From Hydrotalea flava (GTDB lineage: Bacteria > Bacteroidota > Bacteroidia > Chitinophagales > Chitinophagaceae), in the NCBI RefSeq assembly GCF_001623405.1, contig NZ_LUHG01000080.1, forward strand, positions 26,640 through 90,639: 64,000 bases of DNA. Reading direction: 5' to 3'. The notes under the pieces are model-generated. The model was not told where the DNA came from. It was given only the letters and a program-made list of their open reading frames with translations, and made no database searches. Each line of letters begins with the position of its first letter. Positions within the stretch are counted from its first letter, which is position 1. The translations under genes were made by a program, and so were the position numbers. This document shows, piece by piece, positions 1,760 through 19,035 of the stretch.

Positions 1760-2926
1760 TCAATTTTTTATATTTATCCAATTACTTAGTTCTTTTTCCA
1801 GTGCCGTTATTTTATCTTCTTCCGGCTTATTGATTGAATTCCAAATAATTATTCCTTTATCATTAATCAGTAGTAGGCTTGGAATGGGCATGTTGGGGTT
1901 AATGTAACTGGTTTTAATGGCGGTATTGCATACAACATTTTTCCAGTTCTCCAAATTCCATTTTATCACAGCGTTGTACCAAGCAAGCAAATCTTTATCT
2001 ATAGAAATGGTTACAATTTCCAACCCTTTTGCATGGTATTTGTTATACAGTTGTTTTAAATAAGGTATTTCTTCAATGCACGGAATACACCAACTTGCCC
2101 AAAAACTGATGATAATGTATTTACCGATTAAACTATGGAGTTGAAAATTTTCCTGATTTAATCCCTTAGCTGTAAAATCAGGTGCGGGTATATTTACCAT
2201 ACTTTTTTGAAGTGCTTCTGCCACTAATTGGCCTACTCTGCTTTGTTGAATACGATCTGTTAATTGATAAAATAGACTGACGGCTTCAGTAGTAGCAATT
2301 TGTTGATTTATGATTAAACTGTATAACTCTGTTGCACTGATGTAGGAATCATTCATTTTTTCTATCCATTGAATGCTTGCCAGCTTTAATGCATTATGAT
2401 AACTTTCAATGCTATCTAGTAAGTTGTGTAGCTGCTGATTCAGTTGAATTTTTAATGTATTATTTGTTTCTGCATTGTATAATTTCAAGATTGCTTCATA
2501 TTTTTTTACTGACGGATGATTCATGAAAATCGCAGTTTTTTTTTCATTCCATTCATGTAATTCTTTGGCAATATTGCTACCTGTTAATTGGTAATCCTTA
2601 AAATTACTATTATTCAATTCTATTGTTTGCTTTCCCTTATCTATGTAAATATCTACATAATTATTGTTGATATGTGGACCTATTAAGTGACAAAAAGTGG
2701 GTTGATTCACCATCCCGGTAAAGTAAAATTCTCCGTTTTTGAGCAGGCAGGTATCTTGTTTCCATTGATTATGTATGGTTGGATATTGCAATACAATATT
2801 TCCTGTATCTCTACCAATTATTTTGCCATATAAAAAGAAAGTATCTATAAAAAAATTATGCTTTTGTGATTTACAATCTATTAGAAATTCAAACAAGAAC
2901 ACTAGTATTAATACTAATTTGTACAT
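1760..2926 (-). CDS. TlpA-like thiol-disulfide oxidoreductase, DUF4369 N-terminus
   Basis: A 388-residue predicted lipoprotein (hydrophobic start, LIDC lipobox). Residues about 30-130 have the DUF4369 pattern (GKIIGRDTGNIVLQYP, LLKNGEFYFTG), followed by a helical linker. Residues about 245-388 form a thioredoxin/AhpC-TSA domain with the active site WCIPC (FWASWCIPCIEEIPYLKQ) and a cis-Pro region (MPIPSLLLI). The family reduces or shuffles disulfides of exported proteins. It is the third TlpA gene of the minus arm and follows a six-cysteine precursor gene by 91 bp containing a large hairpin. I infer it acts on that peptide or shares its redox relay. Confidence 0.85.
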   Translation of the reverse strand: MYKLVLILVFLFEFLIDCKSQKHNFFIDTFFLYGKIIGRDTGNIVLQYPTIHNQWKQDTCLLKNGEFYFTGMVNQPTFCHLIGPHINNNYVDIYIDKGKQTIELNNSNFKDYQLTGSNIAKELHEWNEKKTAIFMNHPSVKKYEAILKLYNAETNNTLKIQLNQQLHNLLDSIESYHNALKLASIQWIEKMNDSYISATELYSLIINQQIATTEAVSLFYQLTDRIQQSRVGQLVAEALQKSMVNIPAPDFTAKGLNQENFQLHSLIGKYIIISFWASWCIPCIEEIPYLKQLYNKYHAKGLEIVTISIDKDLLAWYNAVIKWNLENWKNVVCNTAIKTSYINPNMPIPSLLLINDKGIIIWNSINKPEEDKITALEKELSNWINIKN

Positions 2927-2943
2927 ATTTAAAATATAAAAAC

Positions 2944-2991
2944 ATTATTCATTATATTATATATTCAATCATATAAAATATAATGAATAAT
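2944..2991 (-). terminator. Hairpin between peptide and TlpA genes (minus arm, pair 3)
   Basis: A 15-bp perfect AT-rich inverted repeat (2944-2958 with 2977-2991) lies in the 91-bp gap between the peptide stop and the TlpA start. It has no long U-tract, so partial termination or mRNA end protection are both possible. Hairpins occupy the same position in most other pairs of the island. Confidence 0.55.
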
Positions 2992-3017
2992 ATTTACGTT
3001 ATAAATTAATATTTATT

Positions 3018-3233
3018 TTACCTTACACAAATCTTGTCTCCTCCTGGTACATTTGGGTTAGATGCATTTCCTGCAGGAGTACAAGTCGTACAAGTATCCG
3101 TACATAAACTTGGGTTATTTCCACAATAAATATTGCAAGAATTCCCAAAACCTGATCCTGCCTTAATTTGTTTCATGGCTGCCTTGCTCAATTGCTGCTG
3201 CAAATCAGTAAGGCTTAATTTTCTTTTTGTCAT
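3018..3233 (-). CDS. Double-glycine-type leader peptide, six-cysteine core (minus arm 3)
   Basis: A 71-residue precursor. The leader (MTKRKLSLTDLQQQLSKAAM then KQIKAGS) ends in an Ala-Gly pair typical of C39-processed leaders and has no cysteine. The core of about 45 residues is rich in Gly, Asn and Thr and carries six cysteines (NSC, IYC, SLC, DTC, TTC, KIC). An even, fixed count suggests three disulfides. It is preceded by the 135-nt structured leader and followed by a TlpA-like gene. It could be a bacteriocin, a signal or a toxin-like knottin; nothing in the sequence decides between these. Confidence 0.8.
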   Translation of the reverse strand: MTKRKLSLTDLQQQLSKAAMKQIKAGSGFGNSCNIYCGNNPSLCTDTCTTCTPAGNASNPNVPGGDKICVR

Positions 3234-3368
3234 TTTTTTACATTTAAAAGTGATTGAATGTTTGCCGGGAGCTTAAAGCCTCACCCGGTGTTGGCTTATC
3301 CGGTCAGCTACTTGTACTTCGTAGCAGGCGTTCCACCGGATGTTTCTTTTAGGGAACGTTACTAAAAG
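3234..3368 (-). promoter_or_regulatory. Structured 5' leader repeat, minus-arm copy M1
   Basis: This is one of three near-identical copies directly upstream of the minus-arm peptide genes. On the minus strand it starts with an inverted repeat (CTTTTAG...CTAAAAG, 3346-3368) around AACGTT. It continues with a closed stem ATCCGGT/ACCGGAT enclosing a GCTAC/GTAGC hairpin, then a CCGGG/CCCGG hairpin with an inner GCTT/AAGC pair, and ends in an A/U-rich stretch before the ATG. The loop between GCTAC and GTAGC differs between copies while the stems persist, which favours a structured RNA. It overlaps the last codons of the TlpA gene upstream of it in transcription. Confidence 0.6.
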
Positions 3369-4380
3369 AAGATTTATGTTCGGTCATTTTTTCTGCTAAA
3401 AAATTATTTAAAGCTTCCGGTGTAATATCTTTCTGAATAATTACATGATGACTATCTAAAAGAAAATTCCTAGGATAGGTATTAATTGATAATTTAAGAG
3501 CTTGAAACCCGTTGGTATCTAATAATTGTTGCCAGGGTAGTTGATACTTGCCTATCATTTTTATCCAGTTTCCTATGTCCTTTGTATTGTCCACTGAAAT
3601 TCCAATCATATTAAAATTAATATTTTTATATTTATGATATATTTGTATGAATTGCGGAAACTGTTCAATACAAGGATTACAATGGCTGAACCAAAAATCA
3701 ATGAGCGTAAATTGGTTTATTTTTTTCTGATTAAAAAGTTGTGTAGGATTTTTCCACATGTCTAATAAGGTTAAATTAGGAAAAATATGGTTCAGACTTA
3801 AAACGGCTGCAGCTTTTAATTTTTCACCTAAACGGATACCTGTATAACTCATTTTCACGGCATCAGATAAATACGAGTATGCAGTATCTAAATTGGGATT
3901 GTAATTGAAAGAAAGCATTCTTGCAAGTTGCCACATAGCCATATAAGATGCAGGATGTTTTTTGATATATACCTGAATGGTTTCACTTGTGTAATGTTGT
4001 TGCTTAAATTGGATCAATTCCTGCATCGTTGCATTATTCATAGCGGGAATTTCACGTATTGAATCAACATTGCATATGATGGTTTGTGTGCCGGCATCAA
4101 TATAGAACAGGTCTGAAACATACTCCTTATTTCCCAGAAATAAAAGGCGGAATGATAATGGGTATGATAAGACACCACTGAATGAAAATTGGCCATTTTT
4201 TACCTTGCCTGTCGTTAAATATTGAATAGGAAGATAATTAGAACTGTCGCCGGTTAATATTAACCGAACGGAACCGGTATCACTATTTATGTAACCATTC
4301 AATATGAAGGGCAGTACAACGTTTTGTGCATGTAAAATGCCAACAGTAATAATTCCTAAACAACAAATTAATTTTTTCAT
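3349..4380 (-). CDS. TlpA-like thiol-disulfide oxidoreductase, DUF4369 N-terminus
   Basis: 343 residues with a cleavable signal peptide (LICCLGIITVGILHAQ). Residues about 25-115 resemble DUF4369 (GYINSDTGSVRLIL, GKVKNGQFSFSG), then a helical region, then a thioredoxin fold with active site CNPC (FWFSHCNPCIEQFPQF). The position before the first cysteine is His rather than the usual Trp. The final residues SSFSNVP are encoded inside the inverted repeat of leader M1, so the C-terminus appears to have been altered when that module was inserted. It follows a six-cysteine peptide gene by 67 bp. Confidence 0.85.
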   Translation of the reverse strand: MKKLICCLGIITVGILHAQNVVLPFILNGYINSDTGSVRLILTGDSSNYLPIQYLTTGKVKNGQFSFSGVLSYPLSFRLLFLGNKEYVSDLFYIDAGTQTIICNVDSIREIPAMNNATMQELIQFKQQHYTSETIQVYIKKHPASYMAMWQLARMLSFNYNPNLDTAYSYLSDAVKMSYTGIRLGEKLKAAAVLSLNHIFPNLTLLDMWKNPTQLFNQKKINQFTLIDFWFSHCNPCIEQFPQFIQIYHKYKNINFNMIGISVDNTKDIGNWIKMIGKYQLPWQQLLDTNGFQALKLSINTYPRNFLLDSHHVIIQKDITPEALNNFLAEKMTEHKSSFSNVP

Positions 4381-4447
4381 ATTGTGCAGTTAAAGCATTC
4401 AGTATGTTTGAATACCTATTCTATGCATTTGAGAAATATGAATGATA

Positions 4448-4636
4448 TCAATAGTTTTTATCACAAACATTACTGCCATTGGTGTCACATTTGCAATAGG
4501 GGGCATTGCAATTACTATTGCAAGTAGCCGGACATTTGTCATTGAATCCGACTGCATTCCCTGCCTTAATTTGTTTCATTTCTGCCCTGCTCAAATGCTG
4601 CTGCAAATCGGCAAGGCTTAATTTTCTTTTTTTCAT
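4448..4636 (-). CDS. Double-glycine-type leader peptide, six-cysteine core (minus arm 2)
   Basis: A 62-residue precursor. The leader is KKRKLSLADLQQHLSRAEM followed by KQIKAGN, with an Ala-Gly processing pair and no cysteine. The core of about 36 residues has six cysteines in a dense pattern (DKC, ATC, SNC, PYCKC, NVC) and ends DKNY. Three ATGs at 10-bp spacing precede the frame, and only the one at 4636 is in frame with the leader. It sits between structured leader M2 and a TlpA-like gene. Confidence 0.8.
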   Translation of the reverse strand: MKKRKLSLADLQQHLSRAEMKQIKAGNAVGFNDKCPATCNSNCNAPYCKCDTNGSNVCDKNY

Positions 4637-4785
4637 TTTTTTTCATTTTTTTTCATTTTTAAAGTGATTGAATATTTGCCGGGAGCTTAAAGCCTCACCC
4701 GGTGTTGGCTTATTCGGTCAGCTACTTGTATTGAGTAGCAGGCGTTCCACCGGATATTTTCTTTTAGGGAACCTTACTAAAAAAA
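4637..4785 (-). promoter_or_regulatory. Structured 5' leader repeat, minus-arm copy M2
   Basis: Second copy of the minus-arm leader RNA. It has the same order of elements as M1: inverted repeat CTTTTAG...CTAAAAA (4761-4783), GCTAC/GTAGC hairpin, and CCGGG/CCCGG hairpin. One base of the outer ATCCGGT stem is mismatched here. The stretch next to the start codon differs from the other copies in carrying two extra ATG-plus-A7 units of 10 bp (4637-4656), which look like a slippage expansion of the start region. Confidence 0.6.
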
Positions 4786-4836: not shown

Positions 4837-5589
4837 TTACAATTTTTTGAGTGCTGTTTTCATTTCATTTAAATTGGAATATACATTGATGATATGGCCG
4901 GTGCTATCTACTATTAACTGCGTAGGAAAACCCATGATTTGTAAGGTATCCATTAAATATTTTTCTTTATTTGGGATGATGGTATATTTAAATGGATGAT
5001 CCGCTAAGAATGCTTTAATGCTATCTGCACGATCAAATGCCATACCTAAAAAAGCAATATCCGGTCTATTCTTGTATGCATCTACCAATGCATTCAATTG
5101 AGGAAATTCAGCCACACAAGTTTTACAATGAATAAACCAACAATTAATGACATATTTTTTTTGTGGTGTTATATGATTATTAATTACTTCATTGCTTATT
5201 GTTTTGAAATTGAAGTTGGGTAGGGGCATACCGCGCATAGAATCGTAATGCCCCTCAGCAATGGCCTTATTGCGAATAACATTTCCAACTTCTGCATTAT
5301 GGGCAATAGCTAATTGATATTGAATGGTACTGTCTTTGCTTTGTAATCTCACCGGAATATATTCCCCAGTTGTTAATTGTTTTAAAAATTCTTTTTTAGT
5401 GATTACACTGTCATGCTCATTATAAGCTATACAATCTGCCGACCAATTCATGTAATCACGATCATAATACAACCAGCTCATGATATTTTTTTCAATATCC
5501 GGGGCATTTACATAAGGCATATTTTTTTCATTAGATGACGTACATCCGAAAAAAAATAAAATTAAAATAAATATTAATAAGTATTTCAT
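4837..5589 (-). CDS. TlpA-like thioredoxin-fold lipoprotein
   Basis: 250 residues, the shortest TlpA-like protein here. The N-terminus is a lipoprotein signal (IFILILFFFGC). There is no DUF4369 domain; the N-terminal 120 residues are unassigned. The thioredoxin part has the active site CKTC (FIHCKTCVAEFPQLNALVD) and a cis-Pro segment (MGFPTQLIVD). It lies 82 bp downstream of a six-cysteine peptide gene, with two strong hairpins in the gap. I infer that it serves in oxidation, isomerisation or reduction of the partner peptide; the unusual CKTC dipeptide implies a redox potential different from that of its paralogues. Confidence 0.85.
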   Translation of the reverse strand: MKYLLIFILILFFFGCTSSNEKNMPYVNAPDIEKNIMSWLYYDRDYMNWSADCIAYNEHDSVITKKEFLKQLTTGEYIPVRLQSKDSTIQYQLAIAHNAEVGNVIRNKAIAEGHYDSMRGMPLPNFNFKTISNEVINNHITPQKKYVINCWFIHCKTCVAEFPQLNALVDAYKNRPDIAFLGMAFDRADSIKAFLADHPFKYTIIPNKEKYLMDTLQIMGFPTQLIVDSTGHIINVYSNLNEMKTALKKL

Positions 5590-5610: not shown

Positions 5611-5672
5611 GATATGAAGGAATTATTTAATTCCTTCATATCAAAATAATGTAATCATCTAATTACATTATT
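5611..5672 (-). terminator. Two hairpins between peptide and TlpA genes (minus arm, pair 1)
   Basis: Two perfect inverted repeats lie in the intercistronic gap. One is a 13-bp stem (5611-5623 with 5630-5642), the other an 11-bp stem (5645-5655 with 5662-5672) touching the peptide stop codon. They could reduce read-through from the peptide into the TlpA gene or protect the peptide mRNA 3' end. Confidence 0.55.
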
Positions 5673-5881
5673 TAGCATTCAACTGCTGTGGCTCCCGATA
5701 CACAATCCGGACGCGCAGCTGGTTGACAAATACTACAGTTTGTAGTGCCTGACCAGCAACACATATAACCTTGTGTGCCTGATAAACCCTGATTTAATCC
5801 ACCCCCAGCCATAATTTGTTTCATTTCTGTCCTGCTCAATTGCTGCTGCAAATCGGCAAGTCTTAATTTTTTCGTTGTCAT
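5672..5881 (-). CDS. Double-glycine-type leader peptide, six-cysteine core (minus arm 1)
   Basis: A 69-residue precursor. The leader is MTTKKLRLADLQQQLSRTEM then KQIMAGG, with no cysteine before the Ala-Gly-Gly site. The core of about 43 residues contains six cysteines (YMCC, TNC, SIC, PDC, VEC) and ends on the last one. It is the first peptide of the minus arm, downstream of the C39-like/VKOR/DsbA gene, and is preceded by leader M3. Confidence 0.8.
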   Translation of the reverse strand: MTTKKLRLADLQQQLSRTEMKQIMAGGGLNQGLSGTQGYMCCWSGTTNCSICQPAARPDCVSGATAVEC

Positions 5882-6037: not shown

Positions 6038-7648
6038 TTAAATGATGATATTTTTTAAATCTTCAATCGAATAATCTTCCGGTAATCTGTACCCATTAAT
6101 AAACAGGGTAGGTGTAAATGCAATACCTGCCTCACGTACCCATTTATTCATGGTATTTACTTCTTGCTGCTGGTCTTTTAAAGACGGGTTTACGGAAAAC
6201 TTTTGTGAAAATTGTTCATAATCTTTTTCCACTGATAAGTACCAGGCATCTAATGCATTCCTTGTTTTCAATTCATTACCCTCTGCATAAATTCCCATTA
6301 AATGATTTACAACCATTTCTCCTTTCGAACTACATAAAAAAATAATTTTTACCTGAATATTCTTATTTGAATGGATGAGTTCTTCTAGGATGGGATGCGC
6401 TTCTGAGCAAGGATTACAATAGGGATTGCATACTTTGATAATGTTGATTTTACCTTCGGGGTTACCTATTGATATGCCAATATTTTGCCAGCCATCAGGC
6501 GCGGCAGGTTGTTGTACTAACAATGCATTGAAAATATCCGGATTAAAATGTGTTCTTCTATAAGCATGGAAATACAACGAATATTTTTTGGCATCTAGAA
6601 ATATAGGTTTAAAAAAAAATAAAAAAATTATTGGTAAAATAACTGCAATTGAAACTACCACCAAAAAATTAGTGTTGACAATATTTAAAATGGATATTTT
6701 TGTAAATAGAGCAACATGTGAAACTGACCAAATCAACTCAAGTAATAAAGTTAATTGAACAATTAAACACAAGGGGCACCATTGTTTTATCACTTTCCAT
6801 TGATAATAAATACTGAATATAATATAAGGACTTGCACATGCACTTAATAATGAAATAAATGCAAATTTATTATCTAAACCCAACCCGGGTAGTAATAAAA
6901 TAATACATGTGCTTGCAAAGTAAATAAAGCCTAATTCACTCCATGAAACACCTGCAATTTTTGAGGCTTTACTATGTAAAATAGCATTGCAATTCGTTTT
7001 CTTCCCAATACCACATAAATTTTTTATGAATGGATTATTCTGATCAATTTCATATATCAATAATAGGCTGGTTGCTAAAATGCCCATCAGCTTAACACAT
7101 ACGATGGCGATGTATGGAATATAACTGTTAAATGAAATTTGCTGATTAAGTACTATTAAACCGGAAATGACCATAAAAGCTGCAATAATGGCTACCCATT
7201 GCTTTAGCCTTGTAAATAATTCTTCTTTTTTATATACTTTATATTGTTGATTGTTTTTTTGAGCTGCATTTTCTGCCAACCAAACAATTTTTTGGAATGA
7301 TTCTAAAAACTGTTCTCTCGATATGGTTTTTTTGCTCAACCGGTTATGATAAAAAGTAACATTATTTTTGTTAATGTCTTGCACTAAAATAAAATCTTTA
7401 CCAACATTTTCTACCTGATGAAAGGCAATAAATGGTGTTTCTATGGTTTCAATTTGTGTTGTCTCTATTTTAAAGGCAGCATTTTTCAAGTTAAATTTAG
7501 CAAAAGTATCACTTAGACTTAATAAGCTGGGATAAAATGGATGTTCTAATAGTGATTCTTTAATTTGCGATGCTGTTATTTGTACCCCTTTTAATTTAGC
7601 ATATTTAATAGCTACAGCATCTAAGGATGTGTTAAAACTATATACCAT
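6038..7648 (-). CDS. C39-like domain - VKOR - DsbA/thioredoxin fusion membrane protein
   Basis: 536 residues in three parts. Residues 1-130 follow the C39 peptidase fold pattern (YPSLLSLSDTFAKF, PFIAFHQVEN, FILVQDI) but lack the N-terminal catalytic Cys and the usual GHF histidine, so this part looks like a binding rather than a cutting domain. Residues about 150-345 have several membrane helices and the VKOR cysteines: one pair spread over LCGIGKKTNCN and one CxxC (WCPLC). Residues about 395-536 are DsbA-like with CNPYCNPC and a cis-Pro loop (FTPTLFING). The VKOR family passes electrons from a thioredoxin-like partner to quinone, so this protein should create disulfides outside the membrane. 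It is divergent from the regulator gene and shares its operator region. Confidence 0.85.
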   Translation of the reverse strand: MVYSFNTSLDAVAIKYAKLKGVQITASQIKESLLEHPFYPSLLSLSDTFAKFNLKNAAFKIETTQIETIETPFIAFHQVENVGKDFILVQDINKNNVTFYHNRLSKKTISREQFLESFQKIVWLAENAAQKNNQQYKVYKKEELFTRLKQWVAIIAAFMVISGLIVLNQQISFNSYIPYIAIVCVKLMGILATSLLLIYEIDQNNPFIKNLCGIGKKTNCNAILHSKASKIAGVSWSELGFIYFASTCIILLLPGLGLDNKFAFISLLSACASPYIIFSIYYQWKVIKQWCPLCLIVQLTLLLELIWSVSHVALFTKISILNIVNTNFLVVVSIAVILPIIFLFFFKPIFLDAKKYSLYFHAYRRTHFNPDIFNALLVQQPAAPDGWQNIGISIGNPEGKINIIKVCNPYCNPCSEAHPILEELIHSNKNIQVKIIFLCSSKGEMVVNHLMGIYAEGNELKTRNALDAWYLSVEKDYEQFSQKFSVNPSLKDQQQEVNTMNKWVREAGIAFTPTLFINGYRLPEDYSIEDLKNIII

Positions 7649-7693: not shown

Positions 7694-7711
7694 TGTAGGG
7701 GAATCCCTACA
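7694..7711. promoter_or_regulatory. Operator copy 1, TGTAGGGGAATCCCTACA
   Basis: An inverted repeat with arms TGTAGGG and CCCTACA around a 4-bp spacer. It lies between the divergent regulator and C39-like/VKOR genes, centred about 54 bp before the latter's start. A TAAGTTTAC -7-like element (7663-7671 read on the minus strand) would place it near -46 of that promoter. It matches five other copies in the island. Confidence 0.75.
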
Positions 7712-7730
7712 ATTTGCTCAAATTGAATTT

Positions 7731-7748
7731 TGTAGGGAATTCCCTACA
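7731..7748. promoter_or_regulatory. Operator copy 2, TGTAGGGAATTCCCTACA
   Basis: A perfect 18-bp palindrome, the best of the six copies, with its centre 37 bp from copy 1. It is on the regulator side of the divergent intergenic region, so autoregulation of the LuxR-type gene is likely. It is separated from the -7-like box TATATTTA (7792-7799) by a long TA repeat. Confidence 0.75.
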
Positions 7749-7813: not shown

Positions 7814-8488
7814 ATGAAAGTTTTTATATATCATAATCAGGCTGATGTAGTAGTTTTAGTGAGGCATCATCTCGAAGCTGGTTTTGCATCCTTATCTATT
7901 GTTTTGTTTAACGACTGTATACATTTTTTACAACAACTTCATTTTGCCAAACCATTGCCCCATTTTATTATATTGGGGTTATCCTCCAAAAAAATAGAAT
8001 CATTGGCCTTAATTGAATTTATTTCTACTCATTATGCCGGATTACCCTTATTACTGGTAGTATCTGAAGTAGGTGTAAAACAAGTGAAAGATGCGTTAGC
8101 CCTTGGTGTTAGCGCTGTGGTTTTGGAAAACAATATACCACAAGAATTACCAGAAGCCGTGGCAGCAATATTCAATCATCAACTTTATTTTTCTGCCCAA
8201 TTAGGCATTACTGCTAAAATACACAAAATACTTCGGGAAGAACGTTGGGCGGAACAATTGAATATGAAAAGCCTTCGTTTAACAGCCACCGAGCGTTCAA
8301 TTATTAGTTTGTTGCCCGGCACATTGAGCTATAAAGAAATAGGACTTATTTTAAACAAAGAAGAAAAAACAATAGAAGTTTATATACAACGCATTTGTAA
8401 AAAATTAAATATAGAAGGAGGGCGAATGGGATTATTGATTTATTGTATTAGTAGAAAATTTATTCGAATTGGCGACGCTTCTTTTTAA
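7814..8488 (+). CDS. LuxR/NarL-type regulator with degenerate receiver domain
   Basis: 224 residues. Residues 1-125 have the receiver fold, but the acidic pair is missing (FIYHNQADV), the phosphoacceptor region reads HFIILGLSSKK with Gly in place of Asp, and the conserved Lys region reads AVVLENN. The C-terminal about 65 residues are a LuxR-type HTH (LTATERSIISLLPGTLSYKEI, EKTIEVYIQRICKKLNI). It therefore probably binds DNA without phosphorylation or senses another signal. It lies between the two arms next to two operator copies, and four more copies precede peptide genes, so it is the likely regulator of the plus arm and of the divergent oxidase gene. Confidence 0.8.
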   Translation: MKVFIYHNQADVVVLVRHHLEAGFASLSIVLFNDCIHFLQQLHFAKPLPHFIILGLSSKKIESLALIEFISTHYAGLPLLLVVSEVGVKQVKDALALGVSAVVLENNIPQELPEAVAAIFNHQLYFSAQLGITAKIHKILREERWAEQLNMKSLRLTATERSIISLLPGTLSYKEIGLILNKEEKTIEVYIQRICKKLNIEGGRMGLLIYCISRKFIRIGDASF

Positions 8489-8526: not shown

Positions 8527-8544
8527 TGTAGGGCTTCCCCTATA
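8527..8544. promoter_or_regulatory. Operator copy 3, TGTAGGGCTTCCCCTATA
   Basis: Upstream of the first plus-arm peptide gene; one arm has a single change (TATA for TACA). Its start is 38 bp before the TATATTTTT box at 8565, so its centre would lie near -43 of a start site just after that box, the usual place for an activator touching RNA polymerase. Confidence 0.7.
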
Positions 8545-8644: not shown

Positions 8645-8818
8645 ATGAAACCATTAACCAAAGATGAAATGAAATTAATTAAAGGAGGTATTGATCAAGG
8701 TTGTGTTGCAAGCATTTGTGAAGCTAAGTCTACTGAATCAAAAAAGTGTAAATGCAGCCCGGCAGGATATGGCTGTTTGTGTACAACAATAGTTGTAGAA
8801 ATTTTACCTCCACAGTAA
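8645..8818 (+). CDS. Double-glycine leader peptide, six-cysteine core (plus arm 1)
   Basis: A 57-residue precursor. The leader MKPLTKDEMKLIKGG is a standard double-glycine leader. The core of 42 residues has six cysteines (QGC, SIC, KKCKC, YGCLC) and a hydrophobic C-terminal tail (IVVEILPPQ). Start and leader align exactly with the four other plus-arm precursors. It lies under operator copy 3 and leader P1, and a terminator-like hairpin follows before the TlpA gene. Confidence 0.8.
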   Translation: MKPLTKDEMKLIKGGIDQGCVASICEAKSTESKKCKCSPAGYGCLCTTIVVEILPPQ

Positions 8819-10610: not shown

Positions 10611-10805
10611 ATGAAACCATTAACCAAAGAAGAAATGAAACAAATTAAAGGAGGTATTACGCATTGTGGCACCTGTTCTGCTAACAGTGCTACCTGCCAA
10701 AGTTTCCCTTCCGGATGGGTTTGTACGAATTTGTATGGCTATGGTGGGTTAGCCATGCAGTGTGCTAATTTATTCACTATGGAGTTGCAATATGTTTCCT
10801 GTTAA
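10611..10805 (+). CDS. Double-glycine leader peptide, six-cysteine core (plus arm 2)
   Basis: A 64-residue precursor with leader MKPLTKEEMKQIKGG. The core of 49 residues has six cysteines (THC, GTC, ATC, WVC, MQC, VSC) and is richer in aromatic and hydrophobic residues than its neighbours, with a Gly-Tyr segment (LYGYGGLAM). The last residue is cysteine. It is under operator copy 4 and leader P2. Confidence 0.8.
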   Translation: MKPLTKEEMKQIKGGITHCGTCSANSATCQSFPSGWVCTNLYGYGGLAMQCANLFTMELQYVSC

Positions 10806-10819: not shown

Positions 10820-10853
10820 ATTGGCTAATCTTTTATCAACAACATTAGCCAAT
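10820..10853 (+). terminator. Hairpin between peptide and TlpA genes (plus 2)
   Basis: A 10-bp perfect stem, ATTGGCTAAT with ATTAGCCAAT, that reaches the ATG at 10852. That location argues for the downstream start at 10879 and for a structure that limits TlpA expression. Confidence 0.5.
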
Positions 10854-10878
10854 GGCTTTATCTGTTTATTACAATTAC

Positions 10879-12204
10879 ATGTGTCTATTAAAAAAAATAT
10901 ATTTCATTGTAATCTTATTATTCTATCACTGTGTATTATTGTCACAAACTTTTCAGATACCATTTTATTTAAATAAATCTGATAGTAACTTTTTTTATGT
11001 TACTGAATTAAATTCACCCACTTACATAAATACATCTGATAGCTTGTTGCATTTAAAAAATGGTATGGTTATTCAGCGTTATGCTGTTTTCCATAAATCT
11101 ATTCAATCACAAAAGGAGCGCCATGACCAAAACGAGGTTTCTATTTTAGTTGGTATTGCACAGCAACAATTAGTAGTAGTGGCTGACCAAAATTTTAATC
11201 ATTCTTTTAGGGATGATTCTGTGTATATTATACCGTTAAAAAGTGCCAATCAATCAACATCTGCATATATTCAACAACTTCCCGTCATACACCTTCGTAA
11301 TTTAGCTTATACCGACACTCATCATACCGTTCATTTATTTGATGCAGCATTTCGTTGTGCGCCTGTAACTGCTTCCGGAAAGCCATTTACCGATAGTGTT
11401 CAATTACAGCAAATCGACTATTTTAAATGTACTATTATTTCTTATGCTTACTATGAATCTGTACCTTTTAGCTATAAAGGGGCCATTTATCAGTTTCGTA
11501 TTTTTCCTTACGCTTTAACGGCTGCTATTTATCCTAAGCAAATACGAAACATACATGCGTATGCTGCTATTTTATTTTATGCCATAGAAAATGAACAATT
11601 ACAATTAATGGCTTATAATACCTTAGATTATGTTTTACAAAATGGACAAGGTACAGCTTTTGGAAAAGATAGTATACATATTCAGTCTATTGATTTTGAT
11701 CATCAAATTTTGCATTTTACCATTGATACTCCTTTAACTGCACATGTAACAATTCCTTATGCAGTTTTAGTAGGCAGCTATCTGTATCAACTTGCATTAC
11801 ATAAAAAAACATCCATCAACTTTCAAGAAAAGCCCTATACCATTCTTGAATTCAGTGGTACCTGGTGCAAGCCTTGTATGGCTTTACAACCCTTTATTAA
11901 ACAGCTAGTACAACAACTCCCTCCACAGCTTCAGTTGATTACTATTCTAAATGAATATAGTATAGAAAATGCAGAAGCATTTTATTGGCAGCACAAGCCA
12001 ACCTGGCCGGTTTATTATGAACCTTTGTATGATGCGGATAATCACACTTTGCATCATTATTTAAACATAGGGATATATCCTACTTTTATGGTTATTGATG
12101 CATCCGGAAATGTATTATTTCATGAAAATGGGATTGGTGCATTAGATAATTTATGTCGACATTTTAACATACCTTATATTGTTTCACTGCCTAGGGAAGA
12201 TTAA
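10879..12204 (+). CDS. TlpA-like thiol-disulfide oxidoreductase
   Basis: About 441 residues from the start at 10879, chosen because it gives a compact signal peptide (LLKKIYFIVILLFYHCVLLS) and avoids the hairpin covering the ATG at 10852. The large N-terminal part is beta-rich and unassigned. The thioredoxin domain starts near residue 310 with active site WCKPC (FSGTWCKPCMALQPFIKQL) and has a cis-Pro loop (GIYPTFMVID). Its 3' end is duplicated as the fossil at 10426-10476, which marks this gene end as a recombination point between pairs. Confidence 0.85.
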   Translation: MCLLKKIYFIVILLFYHCVLLSQTFQIPFYLNKSDSNFFYVTELNSPTYINTSDSLLHLKNGMVIQRYAVFHKSIQSQKERHDQNEVSILVGIAQQQLVVVADQNFNHSFRDDSVYIIPLKSANQSTSAYIQQLPVIHLRNLAYTDTHHTVHLFDAAFRCAPVTASGKPFTDSVQLQQIDYFKCTIISYAYYESVPFSYKGAIYQFRIFPYALTAAIYPKQIRNIHAYAAILFYAIENEQLQLMAYNTLDYVLQNGQGTAFGKDSIHIQSIDFDHQILHFTIDTPLTAHVTIPYAVLVGSYLYQLALHKKTSINFQEKPYTILEFSGTWCKPCMALQPFIKQLVQQLPPQLQLITILNEYSIENAEAFYWQHKPTWPVYYEPLYDADNHTLHHYLNIGIYPTFMVIDASGNVLFHENGIGALDNLCRHFNIPYIVSLPRED

Positions 12205-12338: not shown

Positions 12339-12527
12339 ATGAAACCATTAACCAAAGAAGAAATGAAATTAATTGTTGGTGGTAGTGCCAGTACACCATG
12401 TACAAACAATGGAGATTGCACTACACATATTACTATTAAATGTAATGGAAAATCACAAGAAAGTGGATCCGGAAGATGTTATGATTCCGGAAATGGCATG
12501 GTATGTCACTACAGTGTTGCTTGTTAA
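12339..12527 (+). CDS. Double-glycine leader peptide, six-cysteine core (plus arm 3)
   Basis: A 62-residue precursor with leader MKPLTKEEMKLIVGG, the only plus-arm member with Val before Gly-Gly. The core of 47 residues is hydrophilic (Ser, Thr, Asn, Gly) with six cysteines (TPC, GDC, IKC, GRC, MVC, VAC) and ends on cysteine. It is under operator copy 5 and leader P3. Confidence 0.8.
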   Translation: MKPLTKEEMKLIVGGSASTPCTNNGDCTTHITIKCNGKSQESGSGRCYDSGNGMVCHYSVAC

Positions 12528-12612: not shown

Positions 12613-14016
12613 ATGGCTAATACGATTTTACCATTTTGTCTATTAAGTGTTTTAGGTATAATGGGATGTAAAACCAGAAGTAAACTGCCGGTTATTCAGG
12701 TGCAGGTAAATGCATCTTTTCAACAACCTGTTCAAATGTCTGTTTGCGATTTCTTTTCTAACGGTTGTGCTTTAGATTATATTGATACTGCCGGTGTTAA
12801 GAAGGTGTTTCATGTCATTCCGGGTCAGCTATTTTCTATTAATAAAGATACCAATTGGTTTTTATTTGATACCGATACCATTACCATTTATAACAGAAAC
12901 GGATATACTTACATCAATACTCAAAATAACGAAAACAAAAAATATAATGAATTTTTAAATAGGTGTTTTGAAATGAAGGCTTCATTTAATAATAGCTATA
13001 CTATTTATTTTTTGCAACATCAAGATAGTATCATTGCTAATGAAAATTTCATTGCTCAACATTTATCTAAAAATGACAGTTTTTATAGAAAAAATGTCAA
13101 TCAATTAATCAATAACTATGATTTTAATCAAAAAATTAAAGATGATTTGCTGCACTATATATTAGAAACCCAAAAATTAATAGATGAATACTATTATTTA
13201 ACAGAATCTATGCCAATATTGGATAGTTTAGGATTACTAAATAATAGATTGAATGATTATATCAATCAAATTAATCGTCAAAAAATTTCCATTTTTTCCC
13301 AAGGTGATATTGCTTTATTAATTTCAAACATTGCTAAACAGCTTACCAAAACATCAATTATTAAATTAAAAACTGATTATTCAATACGTATTTATTTCGA
13401 TGACATCCAGCATTATTTCAATAAACAATCTATTTGTTATGATTATCTTGTTGCCTCTTTATATGTTCATGCGCAACGTAAAAAAATCAAACTAAATGGA
13501 ACTTTATATAGAACATTAAAAAGAGAAGCAGTCAAATCAATCTTTTTTAAATATATTGATAAGAGTACTCTTGCCGAAACAGATAAATTAAAGGACTCCC
13601 CAAAAAATAAAAATTTATATGATATCCAATTTCATTCGCAAGATTTTTCAGAGATAGTATCACAATATTCTGATAAGCCCTTATTGATTTATTTTTGGGC
13701 TACCTGGTGTTTACCTTGTTTAAAAAGTTTGCCTGAAATTGTTGATTTAAAAAAGAAGTATCCTGATTTAAATATTCTATTTGTATCCATTGATAAATCA
13801 CAAGATAATTGGCAATCTTTTTTGTTTGAGCGGAATATGTTTGCCTCAAATCAATTTAGAAGAAATTTCGCTAATCAAGATACCATTTTTAAAAAAATTC
13901 TAACCATCCCAAAATATGGATTATTATTAAATGAGGGTTTTGATTTAAATTTATTAGATGAAATTAATGATTCTACTATGCATCGATATTTAACGAAAAT
14001 TAAATCCAAATTTTAG
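12613..14016 (+). CDS. TlpA-like thiol-disulfide oxidoreductase lipoprotein
   Basis: 467 residues with a lipoprotein signal (FCLLSVLGIMGC). A beta-rich N-terminal about 100 residues is followed by a long helical region rich in Asn, Lys and Ile, then a thioredoxin domain with active site WCLPC (YFWATWCLPCLKSLPEIVDL). The cis-Pro region reads TIPKYGLLL. Codon use is strongly AT-biased, like the rest of this arm. Partner of plus-arm peptide 3. Confidence 0.85.
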   Translation: MANTILPFCLLSVLGIMGCKTRSKLPVIQVQVNASFQQPVQMSVCDFFSNGCALDYIDTAGVKKVFHVIPGQLFSINKDTNWFLFDTDTITIYNRNGYTYINTQNNENKKYNEFLNRCFEMKASFNNSYTIYFLQHQDSIIANENFIAQHLSKNDSFYRKNVNQLINNYDFNQKIKDDLLHYILETQKLIDEYYYLTESMPILDSLGLLNNRLNDYINQINRQKISIFSQGDIALLISNIAKQLTKTSIIKLKTDYSIRIYFDDIQHYFNKQSICYDYLVASLYVHAQRKKIKLNGTLYRTLKREAVKSIFFKYIDKSTLAETDKLKDSPKNKNLYDIQFHSQDFSEIVSQYSDKPLLIYFWATWCLPCLKSLPEIVDLKKKYPDLNILFVSIDKSQDNWQSFLFERNMFASNQFRRNFANQDTIFKKILTIPKYGLLLNEGFDLNLLDEINDSTMHRYLTKIKSKF

Positions 14017-14271: not shown

Positions 14272-14436
14272 ATGAAACCATTAACCAAAGAAGAAATGAA
14301 ATTAATTAAAGGAGGTACTGATCCTTCTGTTTGTATTACATGTTGGTATGGCCCATTATGTGGACCAACAAAACAATGTGAAAGAGGAAAATCGGATAAA
14401 GAACTGATTTGTAATGGGCGTAGTATAGGCTGTTAA
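14272..14436 (+). CDS. Double-glycine leader peptide, six-cysteine core (plus arm 4)
   Basis: A 54-residue precursor with leader MKPLTKEEMKLIKGG. The core of 39 residues is the shortest in the island and has six cysteines (SVC, ITC, PLC, KQC, LIC, IGC), a WYGP segment and a C-terminal cysteine. It lies under operator copy 6 and leader P4. Confidence 0.8.
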   Translation: MKPLTKEEMKLIKGGTDPSVCITCWYGPLCGPTKQCERGKSDKELICNGRSIGC

Positions 14437-14585: not shown

Positions 14586-15914
14586 ATGAAATTCTTTCAC
14601 ATTCTGATAGTTTTATTCCTGTTTACTTCTTGTGGTATAAAAATTTCAGTAGTTAAAAATGAAGCAGATTTTTATAAAAGCCATAATTTACTTATCATGG
14701 GAAATGACGGTCAGTTAAATAAACACGATTCTTTATATGCTAAATACAAAGGTTGTGAATCATTTACTGTTTGTAAATTTTATTTCAATCGGCCACAAAG
14801 TTATTACAATGAATGGCAATCTGGAAAGATTAGTACAATTGCCTACGATTCTATCAAAGAAAAATTACTTCAAGATGAACTTTTGTGCATTTGTCAAGAT
14901 ACCAACACGACTATTACACTTAAAATATTTTTAGGAAAGCTTTCCAATGACCAGTATTTCATTGTACCCGATAGTAATAATGATGGCAGTTTTTTCAATG
15001 ATTCTGCAATTGTATTAACAAATATGAGTGTTCAACCGAATGAAAAATATCATAGAATTACATTCATTAATGTATCTGGTTGTTATAACAACCAGCTTTT
15101 GCATTTTAAATTTGAAGCATCGGTAAAGGTTAGCCCTACATCGCAAATCCAATATAGTACAATTGAGCTATCCGATACAAAAAGTTACATCGGTAACAGT
15201 AAAATTAATGGGAATAATTATTCATTTCAGTTAATTGAATTTGTTCCTATTAGGTTTAGTCAATTGGTGTTTCAAAAATTTTTATATAGCATAAGACTTG
15301 TGAATGTCAGTCAAAACATGGTTAGTAATGTATGTTTATTTTCAGATACTATATGTTTAAATAAAAAAAACTATGTTTTCAAACAAAAAAAACCTGAGGT
15401 TGGATATGTTAAGTTAAAGCGAGTTAATTCTGCTACATCAATAGATATGAAATGGAAAAGAACTAATCCAACAAAAAATATATTGAATAGCCAGCAAATA
15501 GATTTGCTTAAAAGCATTACCGGATTGTCTTTGAATCATAAAATTATTTTTACCAATTTTTGGTTTGCCAACTGCCCACCATGCATTGCTGAGTTTCCAG
15601 CGTTAAATAATTTGTATGATAGTTTAAAGCAATATCCTGATATTGTTTTTTTATCTTTTGCCATGGAGAATCAAGACACGATTAATAGTTTTAAAAAACG
15701 TTATCAAATTCGTTTTCCGGTTTATTCAATTACTTCTGAGCAAAATGATTTTTTACAAGGCGCTCCCATTTTTCCTGCAAATATAATATGGACAGAAAAA
15801 TGGGAACAGGCATATATTCAACGTGGTGGTTCTAAAGATAATTTGGCTGCAAAAGAATTTTTTAAAAGTACAATATTACCAATTTTAATTCAAATAAGAC
15901 AAAAAGTAAAATGA
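14586..15914 (+). CDS. TlpA-like thioredoxin-fold lipoprotein
   Basis: 442 residues with a lipoprotein signal (ILIVLFLFTSC). The N-terminal 300 residues are beta-rich and unassigned, with acidic DSNNDGSFFNDS-type loops. The C-terminal thioredoxin-like domain has the active site NCPPC (TNFWFANCPPCIAEFPALNN), where Asn replaces Trp before the first cysteine, and a proline-containing loop (GAPIFPANIIW). Partner of plus-arm peptide 4. Confidence 0.8.
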   Translation: MKFFHILIVLFLFTSCGIKISVVKNEADFYKSHNLLIMGNDGQLNKHDSLYAKYKGCESFTVCKFYFNRPQSYYNEWQSGKISTIAYDSIKEKLLQDELLCICQDTNTTITLKIFLGKLSNDQYFIVPDSNNDGSFFNDSAIVLTNMSVQPNEKYHRITFINVSGCYNNQLLHFKFEASVKVSPTSQIQYSTIELSDTKSYIGNSKINGNNYSFQLIEFVPIRFSQLVFQKFLYSIRLVNVSQNMVSNVCLFSDTICLNKKNYVFKQKKPEVGYVKLKRVNSATSIDMKWKRTNPTKNILNSQQIDLLKSITGLSLNHKIIFTNFWFANCPPCIAEFPALNNLYDSLKQYPDIVFLSFAMENQDTINSFKKRYQIRFPVYSITSEQNDFLQGAPIFPANIIWTEKWEQAYIQRGGSKDNLAAKEFFKSTILPILIQIRQKVK

Positions 15915-16027
15915 AATATATAAAAATAATTATGCAATATAAGCTAATAATTTTTTAAATTTAATAAATGATAATGTTGGTTTGAATATCAGTAAAGTTA
16001 TATTTTTCAACCGTTTCGTTTTAAAAA

Positions 16028-16246
16028 ATGAAACCATTAACCAAAGAAGAAATGAAACAAATTAAAGGTGGTGTTACGGGTGTTCCAAGCCAAACTTTAG
16101 AAGGACAGTGTACTTCAACGTGTTGGGATGCGCCTGTGGAAGGAAATGAAATTGGATCTGTTTCTGTTTCAAGTTGCTCTACAGATTATGGTGCTTGCAA
16201 AAGCCAATATCCATCAGCTGTAAAAGCTACTTGCGTTTGTAGCTAA
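16028..16246 (+). CDS. Double-glycine leader peptide, six-cysteine core (plus arm 5)
   Basis: A 72-residue precursor with leader MKPLTKEEMKQIKGG. The core of 57 residues is the longest in the island and has six cysteines (GQC, STC, SSC, GAC, ATC, VC). Unlike the other four plus-arm precursors it has no TGTAGGG operator and no 80-nt leader. Upstream are 113 bp of AT-rich DNA after the preceding TlpA gene, so it may depend on read-through or another promoter. Confidence 0.8.
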   Translation: MKPLTKEEMKQIKGGVTGVPSQTLEGQCTSTCWDAPVEGNEIGSVSVSSCSTDYGACKSQYPSAVKATCVCS

Positions 16247-16254
16247 GAATGAAC

Positions 16255-16283
16255 AAGGTTGCCTATTTTTTATAGGCAACCTT
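16255..16283 (+). terminator. Terminator-like hairpin between peptide and TlpA genes (plus 5)
   Basis: A 12-bp perfect stem, AAGGTTGCCTAT with ATAGGCAACCTT around a T5 loop, 8 bp after the peptide stop. There is no U-run behind it. Confidence 0.55.
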
Positions 16284-16310
16284 ACCTATTGATTAAATCA
16301 TTTATTTAAT

Positions 16311-17815
16311 ATGAATACTATTTACTTTATGACAACAAAATTGTATCATGGTTTAGTGCCATTGCTGTTCTCTCTTTTTTTTCCTTTCATATGTTATTCC
16401 GCTGATACACAAATACCCAATAAAGGGGTATATAATGTTTATATACAAACAGTCTCATCATTTTTCAATTCTGAAATCAAGGCTATAAATATAACTTATG
16501 ATATTTTTTACCCTTTTGTGGCATTAAAAAAGCAAACTATTAATCTTGTAAATCATTTTGCCAAGCAAACATATCGGTTAACAATACCAACTACCATCTT
16601 CCAAGTAGCCTATAATAAACCTATTTGTGTGAACAATAATGATACTATTTTCTTAACACTGAATAAAAATAATAAAGTGGTTTATAGTGAAAAAATCCAA
16701 CACGCTATTTTTATTTTAAATATTTGAATAGGTATAATGATAGTCTTCCCATAAAATCCATTTTAACATCTTTACGTGATACTACGCTTAATTTTATGCA
16801 ATATAAAATTATTTTATATCAAAAATTTCAGGCTGACTCTCTTTTTATTGTTTCGTTTTTTAACAAACGAGGGGGTGATAATGAAAAAATTTTTATTGCT
16901 AATGCTAAATGTGTATATATTGATTTATTGTACAAATATTTTGTGCATCGTTCTTTATCTTTAACCGATGATGAAAAAAATTTTTTTAAAACATTTATTC
17001 CTTTTTTAAATAGCATTGAAGCCTTAAAAGCAACCACTACTTATTACAGAATGGCATTAGATGCAGTGGTTAAAGCCAATGCTAATATTGGCGTAAATAT
17101 GAGTTTTACTGTAAAACAGTTTAAAGATATTTTTTTGACGGCGAATCAATTGTTTTCTACATCTATGTTAAAGGTATTTACTTTAACCCAATTTACTACA
17201 ATTACAAATTGGTACAATACTACCTATTTGCCATTAGCTACTACCATTAAAGATAGTTTATTGTATGGCACTTATAGTATAGATACAACAGATCAGCAGG
17301 CCCTGCTGATGCGTTACAACAATTTTAAAAATGCATATACTAATATGTTGCCTTATAAAAATACGTTATTCATTAATTATTCCGGCCAAAAAATATCGCT
17401 TTCGCAATTACTCAACACCAATAAACCAATTGTTATTAATTTCTGGGCAACTTGGTGTGGACCCTGTATTGCTGAGATGCCTATGTTGGATAGTTTGCAA
17501 CATATATTAAAAGATAAAATTACATTGTATACCATATCAATTGATAAGAACAAGCAAGCATGGCACAATTTTCTTCAACAGCGGCCATCTATGCAAACTT
17601 ATTCTTATTGTGTAGATACGATGGAGAATAATGCTTTTTTGCAACAATACCAAATAGCTAAAGTACCCCGCTTTATGGTGCTACTTTCTAACGGTGATAT
17701 TCTTGCTTCTAATTTTCAAAACACTGCCAATGATCCTAATTTTGTCAATAGTTTGGATGAATTGTTAATACGTATGAAAGTGTATCATGCTAATTTAAAT
17801 GCTAATGATGATTGA
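16311..17815 (+). pseudogene. TlpA-like oxidoreductase gene split by a frameshift
   Basis: Two frames together give one TlpA-like protein of about 500 residues. The first (16311-16727) has a signal peptide (LLFSLFFPFICYSA) and the usual beta-rich start. The second is open from 16691 to 17815 and carries a helical region and a thioredoxin domain with WCGPC (NFWATWCGPCIAEMPMLDSL) and a cis-Pro loop (KVPRFMVLL). The frames overlap around an A6 run at 16690-16695, where one inserted or deleted A would join SEK to NPTRYFYFKYLNRYND. Comparison with the paralogue at 12613 (KKYNEFLNR) supports the joined reading. It could be a sequencing error, a true mutation or a slippage switch. Confidence 0.65.
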
Positions 17816-19035
17816 CTATAAAAAATGGACCTTTCTTACTAACTTTCTATTATTTACCTTTCCTTTCCTATTTGCGCAACAGGAAACTTGTAAACCATTT
17901 ACCATACAGGGTACTGCACAATGGCCCAATGGCACTACCATTTATTTGCAATATGTTGTAACGCCTACACAATTGGTAACAGACAGTTGTAAAGTGATTA
18001 ACCACCGTTTTTATTTTAAAGGCTGCATTACAGAACCCGTTATGGCAACTTGTTCTATTGGGCCGCTAATGAATGCGGTAGTTAGTAATGAATATTGTGA
18101 TATTTTTTTATCGCCTGCTTCTATGCAATTAACCATTCCACGAAACAATATCTACAACCATTCTCACTTATCCGGTTCCGTAGAAGATAGTATTTTTTCT
18201 GCAGATAGAGCAATTCATACCACATTTCTGGAATGGCGAAAGCCATTACAAGACAGTATGCTATTGTATCAGAAGACTATTCAAAAAGCTGTGCAGGAAA
18301 ACAATGCTACACTGGTTACTAAATATGAATCATTGGTACGGCAGTTGCAGGAAAAATTATATGTATCTCTTCAACAAGAAAAAAACGCTGATTCATTGTT
18401 AATTTTACAACATCCATTTTCTTATTTTACATTAAGTTGGTTAGCGTCTGCCAATAATGATATGATGCCTCTTTCCACTGTTGAACAAATGTATGCAGCC
18501 TTTCCGGATGCTTTAAAAAAGAGTAAGAATGGTAGGGTTATTGCACAAATGCTTGATAATGAAAAAAAATTTGCAGTAGGTAATTCAGTTCCCGATTTTA
18601 TAGTAAATGATACTAAAGGTAATACCTATTCATTTGGCTGCATACCGGCAGCAGCAATATGTTTTATTGAAGTTTGGGGTATCTTATTGCCTGCCCTGCA
18701 GGAAATTAGAACCCTATCTAAAAAATATAGATTCACTATACCGCGATCATTTAACAATTATTGGTATTTCTACTGAACATAGTGCGGCTGACTGGCATCG
18801 TTGGGTAGAACATGCCCATTTGCCATGGATTCAGATATTGGATCAAACTGTTATTCCAATCGCTGTAGATAAATACCAGAAAATTCAGGATACCTATCAA
18901 ATAGTAAGCATACCTTCTATGCTGCTAATAGATAAAGAATGACGTATTGTAGCGAAATATGGCGGCTACTATACTTCACCCACTGCTTATATTCCTGCAT
19001 TAAAACAGCAGCTACAGGCTGTTTTTGGGTATTAA
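17799..19035 (+). pseudogene. Decayed TlpA-like oxidoreductase gene (frameshift plus nonsense codon)
   Basis: Its start overlaps the previous frame by 17 bp. The first frame has a signal peptide (FLLFTFPFLFAQ), a DUF4369 domain (FTIQGTAQWPNGTTIYLQY) and a helical linker. Near 18640-18660, at a CAG-rich stretch, the frame shifts by one; the thioredoxin domain continues in the next frame with YCLPC (LLKFGVSYCLPCRKLEPYL). A TGA at 18940-18942 interrupts it within LLIDKE, after which RIVAKYGGYYTSPTAYIPAL continues in the same frame to a stop at 19033-19035. It is the only TlpA-like gene in the island without its own peptide. Two separate lesions make a real pseudogene likely. Confidence 0.75.

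What the first reader, a model, noticed from the sequence alone, without database searches (positions are those of the whole stretch)
1760..19035. Island of eight peptide-TlpA modules around a C39-like/VKOR/DsbA oxidase and its regulator
The order leader element, double-glycine-type precursor, then TlpA-like oxidoreductase repeats eight times on two divergent arms, with a disulfide-forming membrane fusion protein and a LuxR-type regulator in the centre. Double-glycine leaders and TlpA proteins are known individually. A dedicated one-to-one pairing, with shared regulation, points to a production line for disulfide-rich secreted peptides. No lanthipeptide, radical-SAM or other modification enzyme and no ABC exporter lies in the window, so disulfides may be the only modification.
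Basis: partly seen in the sequence, partly recalled or inferred. Interest (0 to 1): 0.93.

Follow-up and report, generated by a model that had tools for sequence, protein, structure and literature searches.

The report
Leader-docked, inside-facing disulfide maker for peptides
A bacterium of the genus Hydrotalea carries eight small peptide genes, each coding for exactly six cysteines and each followed by a TlpA-type thiol-enzyme gene (one of them broken), around one membrane protein that is predicted to grip the peptides' leaders and likely stitches their disulfide bonds inside the cell before export, which would be a new way to make disulfide-rich peptides.

Summary
The island is real: eight double-glycine precursors (54-72 aa), each with exactly six Cys, precede eight TlpA-type genes around a C39-like/VKOR/DsbA protein and a LuxR-type regulator. 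Corrections: the shared upstream element stands before seven of eight precursors, and TlpA 8 is split. Relatives show a conserved system: of 80 named loci 80 have the fusion, 66 a cysteine-rich GG peptide, 57 TlpA, 55 an ABC exporter with intact C39 motif; 103 of 111 detected cores have an even Cys number. No C39 exporter was found in the window's own genome, so export there is unexplained. Two findings go further. (1) The fusion's C39-like domain has lost the protease residues, and its charge pattern is opposite to most unfused VKORs (109 of 109 fused; controls 18 of 25 negative, 5 zero, 2 positive), which predicts that both VKOR cysteine pairs and the DsbA domain face the cytoplasm: an inverted, leader-docked oxidase acting before export. 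(2) TlpA travels with the peptide core, not the leader (Mantel r 0.94 versus 0.03, 18 modules). Best reading: disulfides made inside, then corrected outside by a core-specific TlpA; immunity remains a rival for TlpA. Nearest known: bacteroidetocins. Nothing was tested at the bench.

The parts
6038..7648 (-). C39-like/VKOR/DsbA-type fusion (536 aa): residues 4-140 C39 fold without the catalytic residues, six TM helices containing a VKOR core (C212, C220, C291, C294), residues 379-536 ScsC/DsbA-like with CNPC
   Evidence: Pfam; invariant Cys in 27 aligned; AlphaFold2 pLDDT 87.7; fold matches; charge topology
7814..8488 (+). LuxR-type (GerE) regulator, divergent from the fusion; no Response_reg domain listed by Pfam
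   Evidence: Pfam, NCBIfam
7694..7748 (.). two operator-like palindromes TGTAGGGNNTCCCNTACA between the fusion and the regulator
3018..3233 (-). precursor 1, six Cys
1760..2926 (-). TlpA 1 (DUF4369 + AhpC-TSA), CIPC, lipobox-like N-terminus
4448..4636 (-). precursor 2, six Cys; core conserved in Hydrotalea sandarakina
3349..4380 (-). TlpA 2, CNPC
5672..5881 (-). precursor 3, six Cys; core conserved in H. sandarakina
4837..5589 (-). TlpA 3 (250 aa), CKTC, lipobox-like
3234..3367 (-). upstream element of the - arm type (operator-like palindrome plus conserved, possibly structured 5' UTR); copies also at 4637-4785 and 5882-6019
8645..8818 (+). precursor 4, six Cys
8961..10388 (+). TlpA 4, CGPC
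8527..8544 (+). operator-like site of the + arm; further sites at 10493-10510, 12221-12238, 14154-14171
10611..10805 (+). precursor 5, six Cys
10852..12204 (+). TlpA 5, CKPC
12339..12527 (+). precursor 6, six Cys
12613..14016 (+). TlpA 6, CLPC, lipobox-like
14272..14436 (+). precursor 7, six Cys
14586..15914 (+). TlpA 7, CPPC, lipobox-like
16028..16246 (+). precursor 8, six Cys; lacks the shared upstream element
16311..17815 (+). TlpA 8 in two frames (16311-16727 with signal-like N-terminus; 16724-17815 with CGPC)
17799..18942 (+). ninth TlpA remnant (DUF4369 piece and Trx piece in different frames), no precursor

Best explanation
Eight double-glycine precursors with six cysteines each are encoded around one C39-like/VKOR/DsbA membrane protein that is predicted to face the cytoplasm, where its C39-like domain, which lacks the protease residues, would dock the leaders and its VKOR-DsbA part likely makes the disulfides of each core before export, after which each core's own TlpA would correct those disulfides outside. 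Shown by sequence: the gene set, the invariant cysteines, loss of the C39 catalytic residues, the reversed charge pattern, co-travel of core and TlpA, and the operator shared by vk/lux and peptide modules. Inferred: leader docking, quinone-coupled oxidation in the cytoplasm, export by a C39-ABC/HlyD pair (seen near the fusion in relatives, not found in this genome), and TlpA acting as a DsbD-fed isomerase/proofreader rather than as immunity. The products are most likely bacteriocin-like; no activity was tested.
Against: The orientation rests on the positive-inside rule; no fusion or labelling data exist. One unfused control (L093) is as strongly positive as the fused proteins and another (L101) weakly so. 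Some fused members keep a Cys near the lost active site (29 of 109 have one in the first 20 aligned columns). A reducing cytoplasm argues against stable disulfides there. No C39 exporter was found in this genome and its only HlyD-like hit belongs to a carbonic-anhydrase-linked operon, so the line is incomplete here; 116 contigs leave gaps. 50 of 111 detected peptides have no TlpA within 600 bp, some because contigs end, so TlpA may not be obligatory. Neighbouring genes co-travel by descent; of the six close core pairs four show a changed leader, and these stem from three modules. Five of 60 exporter-bearing loci showed no C39 motif by my pattern.
Confidence: 0.47

Rival explanations
1. The fusion is an ordinary periplasmic VKOR-DsbA oxidase that acts on peptides after export; the C39-like domain is a remnant or a periplasmic substrate-holding domain.
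For: Well-studied bacterial VKORs face the periplasm (established knowledge); the TlpAs carry signal-like N-termini and would meet the peptide there; one unfused control shares the fused charge pattern (L093).
Against: Charge pattern reversed in 109 of 109 fused proteins relative to 18 of 25 controls; it would need a 130-residue N-terminal domain without a signal peptide to cross the membrane; loops then facing the cytoplasm carry 0.1-0.3 K/R each on average.
Confidence: 0.22
2. Each TlpA is the immunity protein of the bacteriocin core beside it, disarming it by reducing its disulfides; the array is a multi-bacteriocin locus like blp.
For: Bacteriocin-immunity gene order, core-specific co-travel, TlpA copies without a detected peptide in the islands, DsbD-type proteins to feed reductases.
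Against: In the bacteroidetocin locus the thiol oxidoreductase is needed for full toxin activity and does not protect (PMC6671954, section 7 read); many detected peptides lack a TlpA neighbour.
Confidence: 0.3
3. The peptides are not disulfide-bonded toxins but thiol or metal-binding peptides (for example for copper), with the thiol enzymes keeping them reduced.
For: ScsC-type proteins are the best fold match of the DsbA-like domain and belong to copper tolerance (established knowledge).
Against: VKOR is an oxidising enzyme; by eye no fixed metal motif among the cores; even Cys number in 103 of 111, which fits pairs but does not prove them.
Confidence: 0.08
4. In this strain the island is a silent remnant that lost its exporter at the left edge.
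For: No C39 exporter found in the genome; a truncated DUF6734 gene at 1451-1756 and a short porin-like ORF at 1080-1340 look like a scar; TlpA 8 and 9 are split.
Against: Eight precursors and seven TlpAs open; conserved cores under selection; a second island with two more open modules on contig C79, which ends near the island.
Confidence: 0.3

Closest known systems
Bacteroidetocin loci of Bacteroidales (Coyne et al. 2019, PMC6671954; section 7 and passages read)
   Same: GG-leader Cys-containing peptide with a thiol oxidoreductase, a membrane protein and an ABC exporter with double-glycine peptidase domain; deleting the thiol enzyme gene attenuates toxin activity
   Different: Four Cys and a 5-TM protein of unknown function there; six or eight Cys in most cores, a C39-like/VKOR/DsbA fusion and arrays of core-specific TlpAs here. 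Homology of the 5-TM protein was not tested
Pediocin PedC, thermophilin BlpG, sublancin BdbA (passages of PMC4919988)
   Same: Dedicated thiol-disulfide oxidoreductase for a bacteriocin
   Different: No quinone-linked oxidase fused to a leader-binding-type domain (recalled), Gram-positive hosts
C39-like domain of HlyB (passages of PMC6363468)
   Same: Catalytically dead C39 fold kept for substrate recruitment
   Different: There fused to an ABC exporter; here fused to a disulfide-making enzyme
Cytoplasm-facing (inverted) VKOR/DsbB of hyperthermophilic archaea and engineered E. coli (recalled; paper not held)
   Same: Disulfide generator with its active site predicted on the cytoplasmic side
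   Different: No leader-docking domain and no dedicated peptide substrates (recalled)
blp-type multi-bacteriocin loci (recalled)
   Same: Several GG peptides under one regulator, cassette shuffling behind shared upstream elements
   Different: Downstream partners here are TlpA-type thiol proteins

Membership tests
GG-leader (C39-substrate) class II bacteriocin-like peptides | Leader with hydrophobic -12, -7, -4 and GG or AG end | tested here: met
   8 of 8 precursors; NCBIfam bacteriocin_sig reaches its cut-off in 3 of 8
GG-leader (C39-substrate) class II bacteriocin-like peptides | C39-ABC exporter encoded in the genome | tested here: not met
   Own genome (held assembly, 116 contigs): only the fusion's C39-like domain. 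In relatives an ABC exporter with intact C39 motif lies in 55 of 80 named loci
GG-leader (C39-substrate) class II bacteriocin-like peptides | Antibacterial activity | not testable with these tools
   needs bench work
Bacteroidetocins | Four-Cys mature peptide | tested here: not met
   six Cys in 8 of 8
Bacteroidetocins | 5-TM protein plus thiol oxidoreductase plus C39-ABC in one unit | not tested
   their sequences were not fetched; only the text was read
VKOR family | Four-helix VKOR core with two Cys pairs | tested here: met
VKOR family | Active site on the periplasmic/luminal side | tested here: inconclusive
   charge rule predicts the opposite side in 109 of 109; no experiment
Peptidase C39 | C39 fold | tested here: met
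Peptidase C39 | Catalytic Cys and His | tested here: not met
   window protein has neither; His in 2 of 109 at the column, 4 within two columns
TIGR04149 rSAM-modified RiPP | Score over the curated cut-off (25 bits) | tested here: not met
   listed for 6 of 8 precursors, best 19.7 bits
TlpA/ResA thiol oxidoreductases | Trx-fold domain with CxxC and exported N-terminus | tested here: met
   7 of 8 TlpA ORFs with CxxC and signal-like start in one frame (signal read by eye), the eighth split; below the cut-offs of the NCBIfam models listed (seven of eight TlpAs given)

The most novel reading that the evidence does not exclude
Leader-guided disulfide formation before export: a quinone-linked VKOR-DsbA oxidase turned inside-out, with a dead C39 protease domain as its leader clamp, serves interchangeable cysteine-rich cores in the cytoplasm, and every core brings its own TlpA that proofreads only that core. 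This would make the disulfide a true leader-directed RiPP modification and be a natural inverted VKOR in mesophilic bacteria.
Probability: 0.42. Interest if true: 0.88.

Novelty: new variant of a known kind. Interest (0 to 1): 0.74.

Why it matters
Disulfides are generally taken to be made outside the cytoplasm. A widespread Bacteroidota protein (607 relatives at E 1e-20 among the 7,995 candidates scored; 273 related loci in species genomes) that couples a leader-binding-type fold to a predicted cytoplasm-facing disulfide generator would be a natural tool for making disulfide-rich peptides inside cells, would open many uncharacterised six- and eight-cysteine peptides to discovery, and gives a testable one-core-one-enzyme system for how a thiol enzyme recognises a single disulfide pattern. 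In the held paper library, searches combining vitamin K epoxide reductase or VKOR with C39, bacteriocin, RiPP or Bacteroidetes listed no paper that holds the VKOR term (3 of 3, 15 of 153 and 10 of 10 papers were listed), and TlpA with bacteriocin, Bacteroidota and related terms gave none. Subscription papers and preprints are mostly not held.

Tried and rejected
Rfam: nothing reached a gathering score for window 1-20000; three sub-threshold snoRNA-like hits taken as chance. A riboswitch reading of the - arm UTR was not pursued: RNAalifold gives two hairpins with one compensatory pair in seven sequences from two species, and the covariation term is unfavourable. The own-genome type I secretion genes on C77 were rejected as the missing exporter: by reading they sit between carbonic anhydrases and a TolC-type gene, and the C39 search does not list them. 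A single alternative immunity gene: peptides without a TlpA neighbour are followed by mixed genes; of six relatives' proteins given to Pfam two are DUF6734, one MG2/TonB-plug, one DsbH-type thioredoxin, one Porph_ging, one without a match. Papers seen only in passages and without the fusion: PMC10352776, PMC8939145, PMC4555120. Limits of counts: the peptide finder is a pattern that demands at least two Cys; hits in L163, L187 and L192 with 2-3 Cys look false but were kept. The label 'ABC' does not demand a C39 motif; one search does. In one search two control rows were misframed and dropped before (29 rows: 2 dropped, 2 C39-fused set apart, 25 counted; the window's own row L097 was left out); four of the 25 have long, probably mis-started N-termini, none matches the C39-like profile; the control loop boundaries depend on the alignment. 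The 109 fused proteins are 104 distinct ones. In the core/TlpA test a frame-broken first peptide (L037:9124), the remnant before L073:7464 and a peptide-less TlpA (L037:1789) were left out, and TlpA 8 entered as its 363-residue piece. The first version cut some + arm leaders wrongly; one search replaces it.
Full report
What is there. The first 19 kb of the window hold two divergent arms around a central pair of genes. On the minus strand are the fusion gene vk (6038-7648) and three modules; on the plus strand the regulator gene (7814-8488) and five modules. Each module is a 54-72 aa precursor followed by a TlpA-type gene. All eight precursors have exactly six Cys, while their cores share little. 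Two leader families occur: MKPLTKEEMKQIKGG-like on the plus arm and a longer one ending in ...LSRAEMKQIKAG or similar on the minus arm. Two corrections are needed. The shared upstream element stands before seven of the eight precursors, and precursor 8 has neither type. TlpA 8 and a ninth, peptide-less TlpA are each spread over two frames.

Regulation. The palindrome TGTAGGGNNTCCCNTACA gives ten matches (both strands, up to two mismatches) in the window against 0.04 expected. In the whole 3.4 Mb genome, with one mismatch allowed, it is found at eight places: two between vk and the regulator, four before precursors 4-7, and two on contig C79; the control pattern gives none. The C79 sites led to a second island with two more precursor-TlpA modules, both with six Cys, near the end of a 17,280-base contig. 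The minus-arm element is found in the genome only in its three places. The regulator has a GerE domain and no Response_reg match is listed.

Relatives. The fusion is matched in 32 of 195 genomes drawn from the family and 24 of 101 genera, some matches being partial. The same-genus contig G061:C13 agrees with Hydrotalea sandarakina DSM 23241 in length and match coordinates, so the window comes from a Hydrotalea. Of 273 relatives found in species genomes the best 80 were kept and read: 80 hold the fusion, 66 a cysteine-rich GG peptide, 57 a TlpA, 60 an ABC exporter (55 with an intact C39 motif), 50 a HlyD. Of the 51 loci not cut by contig ends the numbers are 51, 43, 40, 44 (39) and 37. Of 111 peptides found by pattern, 68 have 6 Cys and 23 have 8; 103 are even and 8 odd; reversed-sequence decoys give 7 hits, six with 2 Cys and one with 6. 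A TlpA follows within 600 bp in 61 of 111. So the finding is one large instance of a conserved system.

The missing exporter. In many relatives a C39-ABC exporter lies near the fusion, also in H. sandarakina. In the window's own genome the only C39 match is the fusion itself, a full exporter query finds only ABC proteins without a C39 match, and the only HlyD-like hit sits in a carbonic-anhydrase operon. The left edge of the island carries a cut DUF6734 gene, a family that follows precursors in two other loci. Either the exporter was lost, or it lies in one of the gaps between 116 contigs.

Orientation. With six TM helices, the N-domain, both VKOR cysteine pairs and the DsbA-like domain are on one side. 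That side carries on average 15.3 K/R in its loops and flanks (minimum 11), the other 0.7 (maximum 3), in 109 of 109 proteins, 104 of them distinct. Control VKORs of the same phylum without a C39-like domain mostly show the reverse: of 25 usable ones 18 are negative, 5 zero and 2 positive (L093 strongly, L101 weakly) on the index on which the fused set is positive in 109 of 109 (Mann-Whitney p 1.6e-13); two further C39-like-fused VKORs from other families, fetched with the controls, are also positive. Relatedness inflates that p-value, but the direction is uniform in the fused set. By the positive-inside rule the active sites face the cytoplasm. This also fits the absence of a signal peptide before a 130-residue N-domain and the place where leaders are found. 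It is a prediction, not a measurement.

Leader docking. All eight leaders carry Leu -12, Met -7 and Ile -4, the positions that the structure paper of a double-glycine protease found to sit in the C39 groove (PMC6363468, passages); the same paper describes catalytically dead C39-like domains as substrate-recruiting. In a genome in which no C39 protease was found, the fusion's C39-like domain is the only recognised partner for that motif. Docking itself is inferred.

TlpA pairing. Over 18 modules (8 in the window, 2 on C79, 8 in H. sandarakina), six of 153 pairs have closely similar cores; their TlpAs are the six most similar pairs (0.52-0.82; the other 147 at most 0.21). Core and TlpA similarity correlate (Mantel r 0.94, p 5e-5); leader and TlpA do not (r 0.03, p 0.34). 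Four of the six pairs, stemming from three modules, have different leaders, so core plus TlpA move as a cassette under exchanged leaders and upstream regions. CxxC is kept in the eight TlpAs of the window, in the eighth on its second piece. DsbB was not found, the fusion is the only VKOR found, DsbD-type proteins are present: the island would hold the only recognised de novo disulfide generator, and TlpAs could be kept reduced as isomerases or reductases.

Mechanism and rivals. I take the fusion as a leader-docked oxidase on the cytoplasmic side and TlpA as core-specific proofreader outside. The main rival for TlpA is immunity. In bacteroidetocins, the closest known case, deleting the thiol oxidoreductase attenuates the toxin and the enzyme does not protect (PMC6671954, section 7), which favours maturation by analogy only. 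The main rival for the fusion is ordinary periplasmic work, which the charge data oppose.

Novelty. GG peptides with a dedicated thiol enzyme are known (bacteroidetocins; pediocin, thermophilin, sublancin: PMC4919988 passages). Where a source names relatives of the fusion, among the 120 listed, it calls them vitamin K epoxide reductase family, thioredoxin domain-containing or uncharacterized membrane protein, and no listed paper of the held library describes the fusion with these peptides (15 of 153 papers were listed). I file it as a new variant of a known kind, with a bolder reading that stays open.

Noticed in passing
L119:12929-17119 (own genome, contig C79): Second island with two open six-Cys precursor-TlpA modules under the same operator and a decayed TlpA near the contig end
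   Followed up: yes
window 1451-1756 (-) and 1080-1340 (+): Cut DUF6734 gene (70 of 286 profile positions) and a short porin-like ORF (by reading) at the island's left edge: likely a deletion scar; DUF6734 follows precursors in L130 and L146
   Followed up: partly
window 3234-3349, 4637-4764, 5882-5998 (-): Conserved 5' UTR of the minus-arm precursors with two predicted hairpins, one compensatory pair (G-C to A-U) between Hydrotalea species
   Followed up: partly
window, about 7760-7790: TA dinucleotide run between vk and the regulator, also present in H. sandarakina: possible phase-variable promoter spacing
   Followed up: no
L122:12213-14672, L165:15276-17144: Large proteins of one similarity group (the first with MG2 and TonB-plug matches) directly downstream of cysteine-rich precursors without a TlpA at that place
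   Followed up: partly
L093 (phylum control): An unfused VKOR with the same reversed charge pattern as the fused ones: either misaligned or a second inverted VKOR
   Followed up: no
window 47388-55594: PLD-like helicase, DUF1016-like protein and a large Eco57I-like methylase in a row: looks like a defence or restriction locus (by reading the ORFs only)
   Followed up: no
window 24081-31899 (-): Arginine biosynthesis genes in one run near the island (by reading the ORFs only)
   Followed up: no
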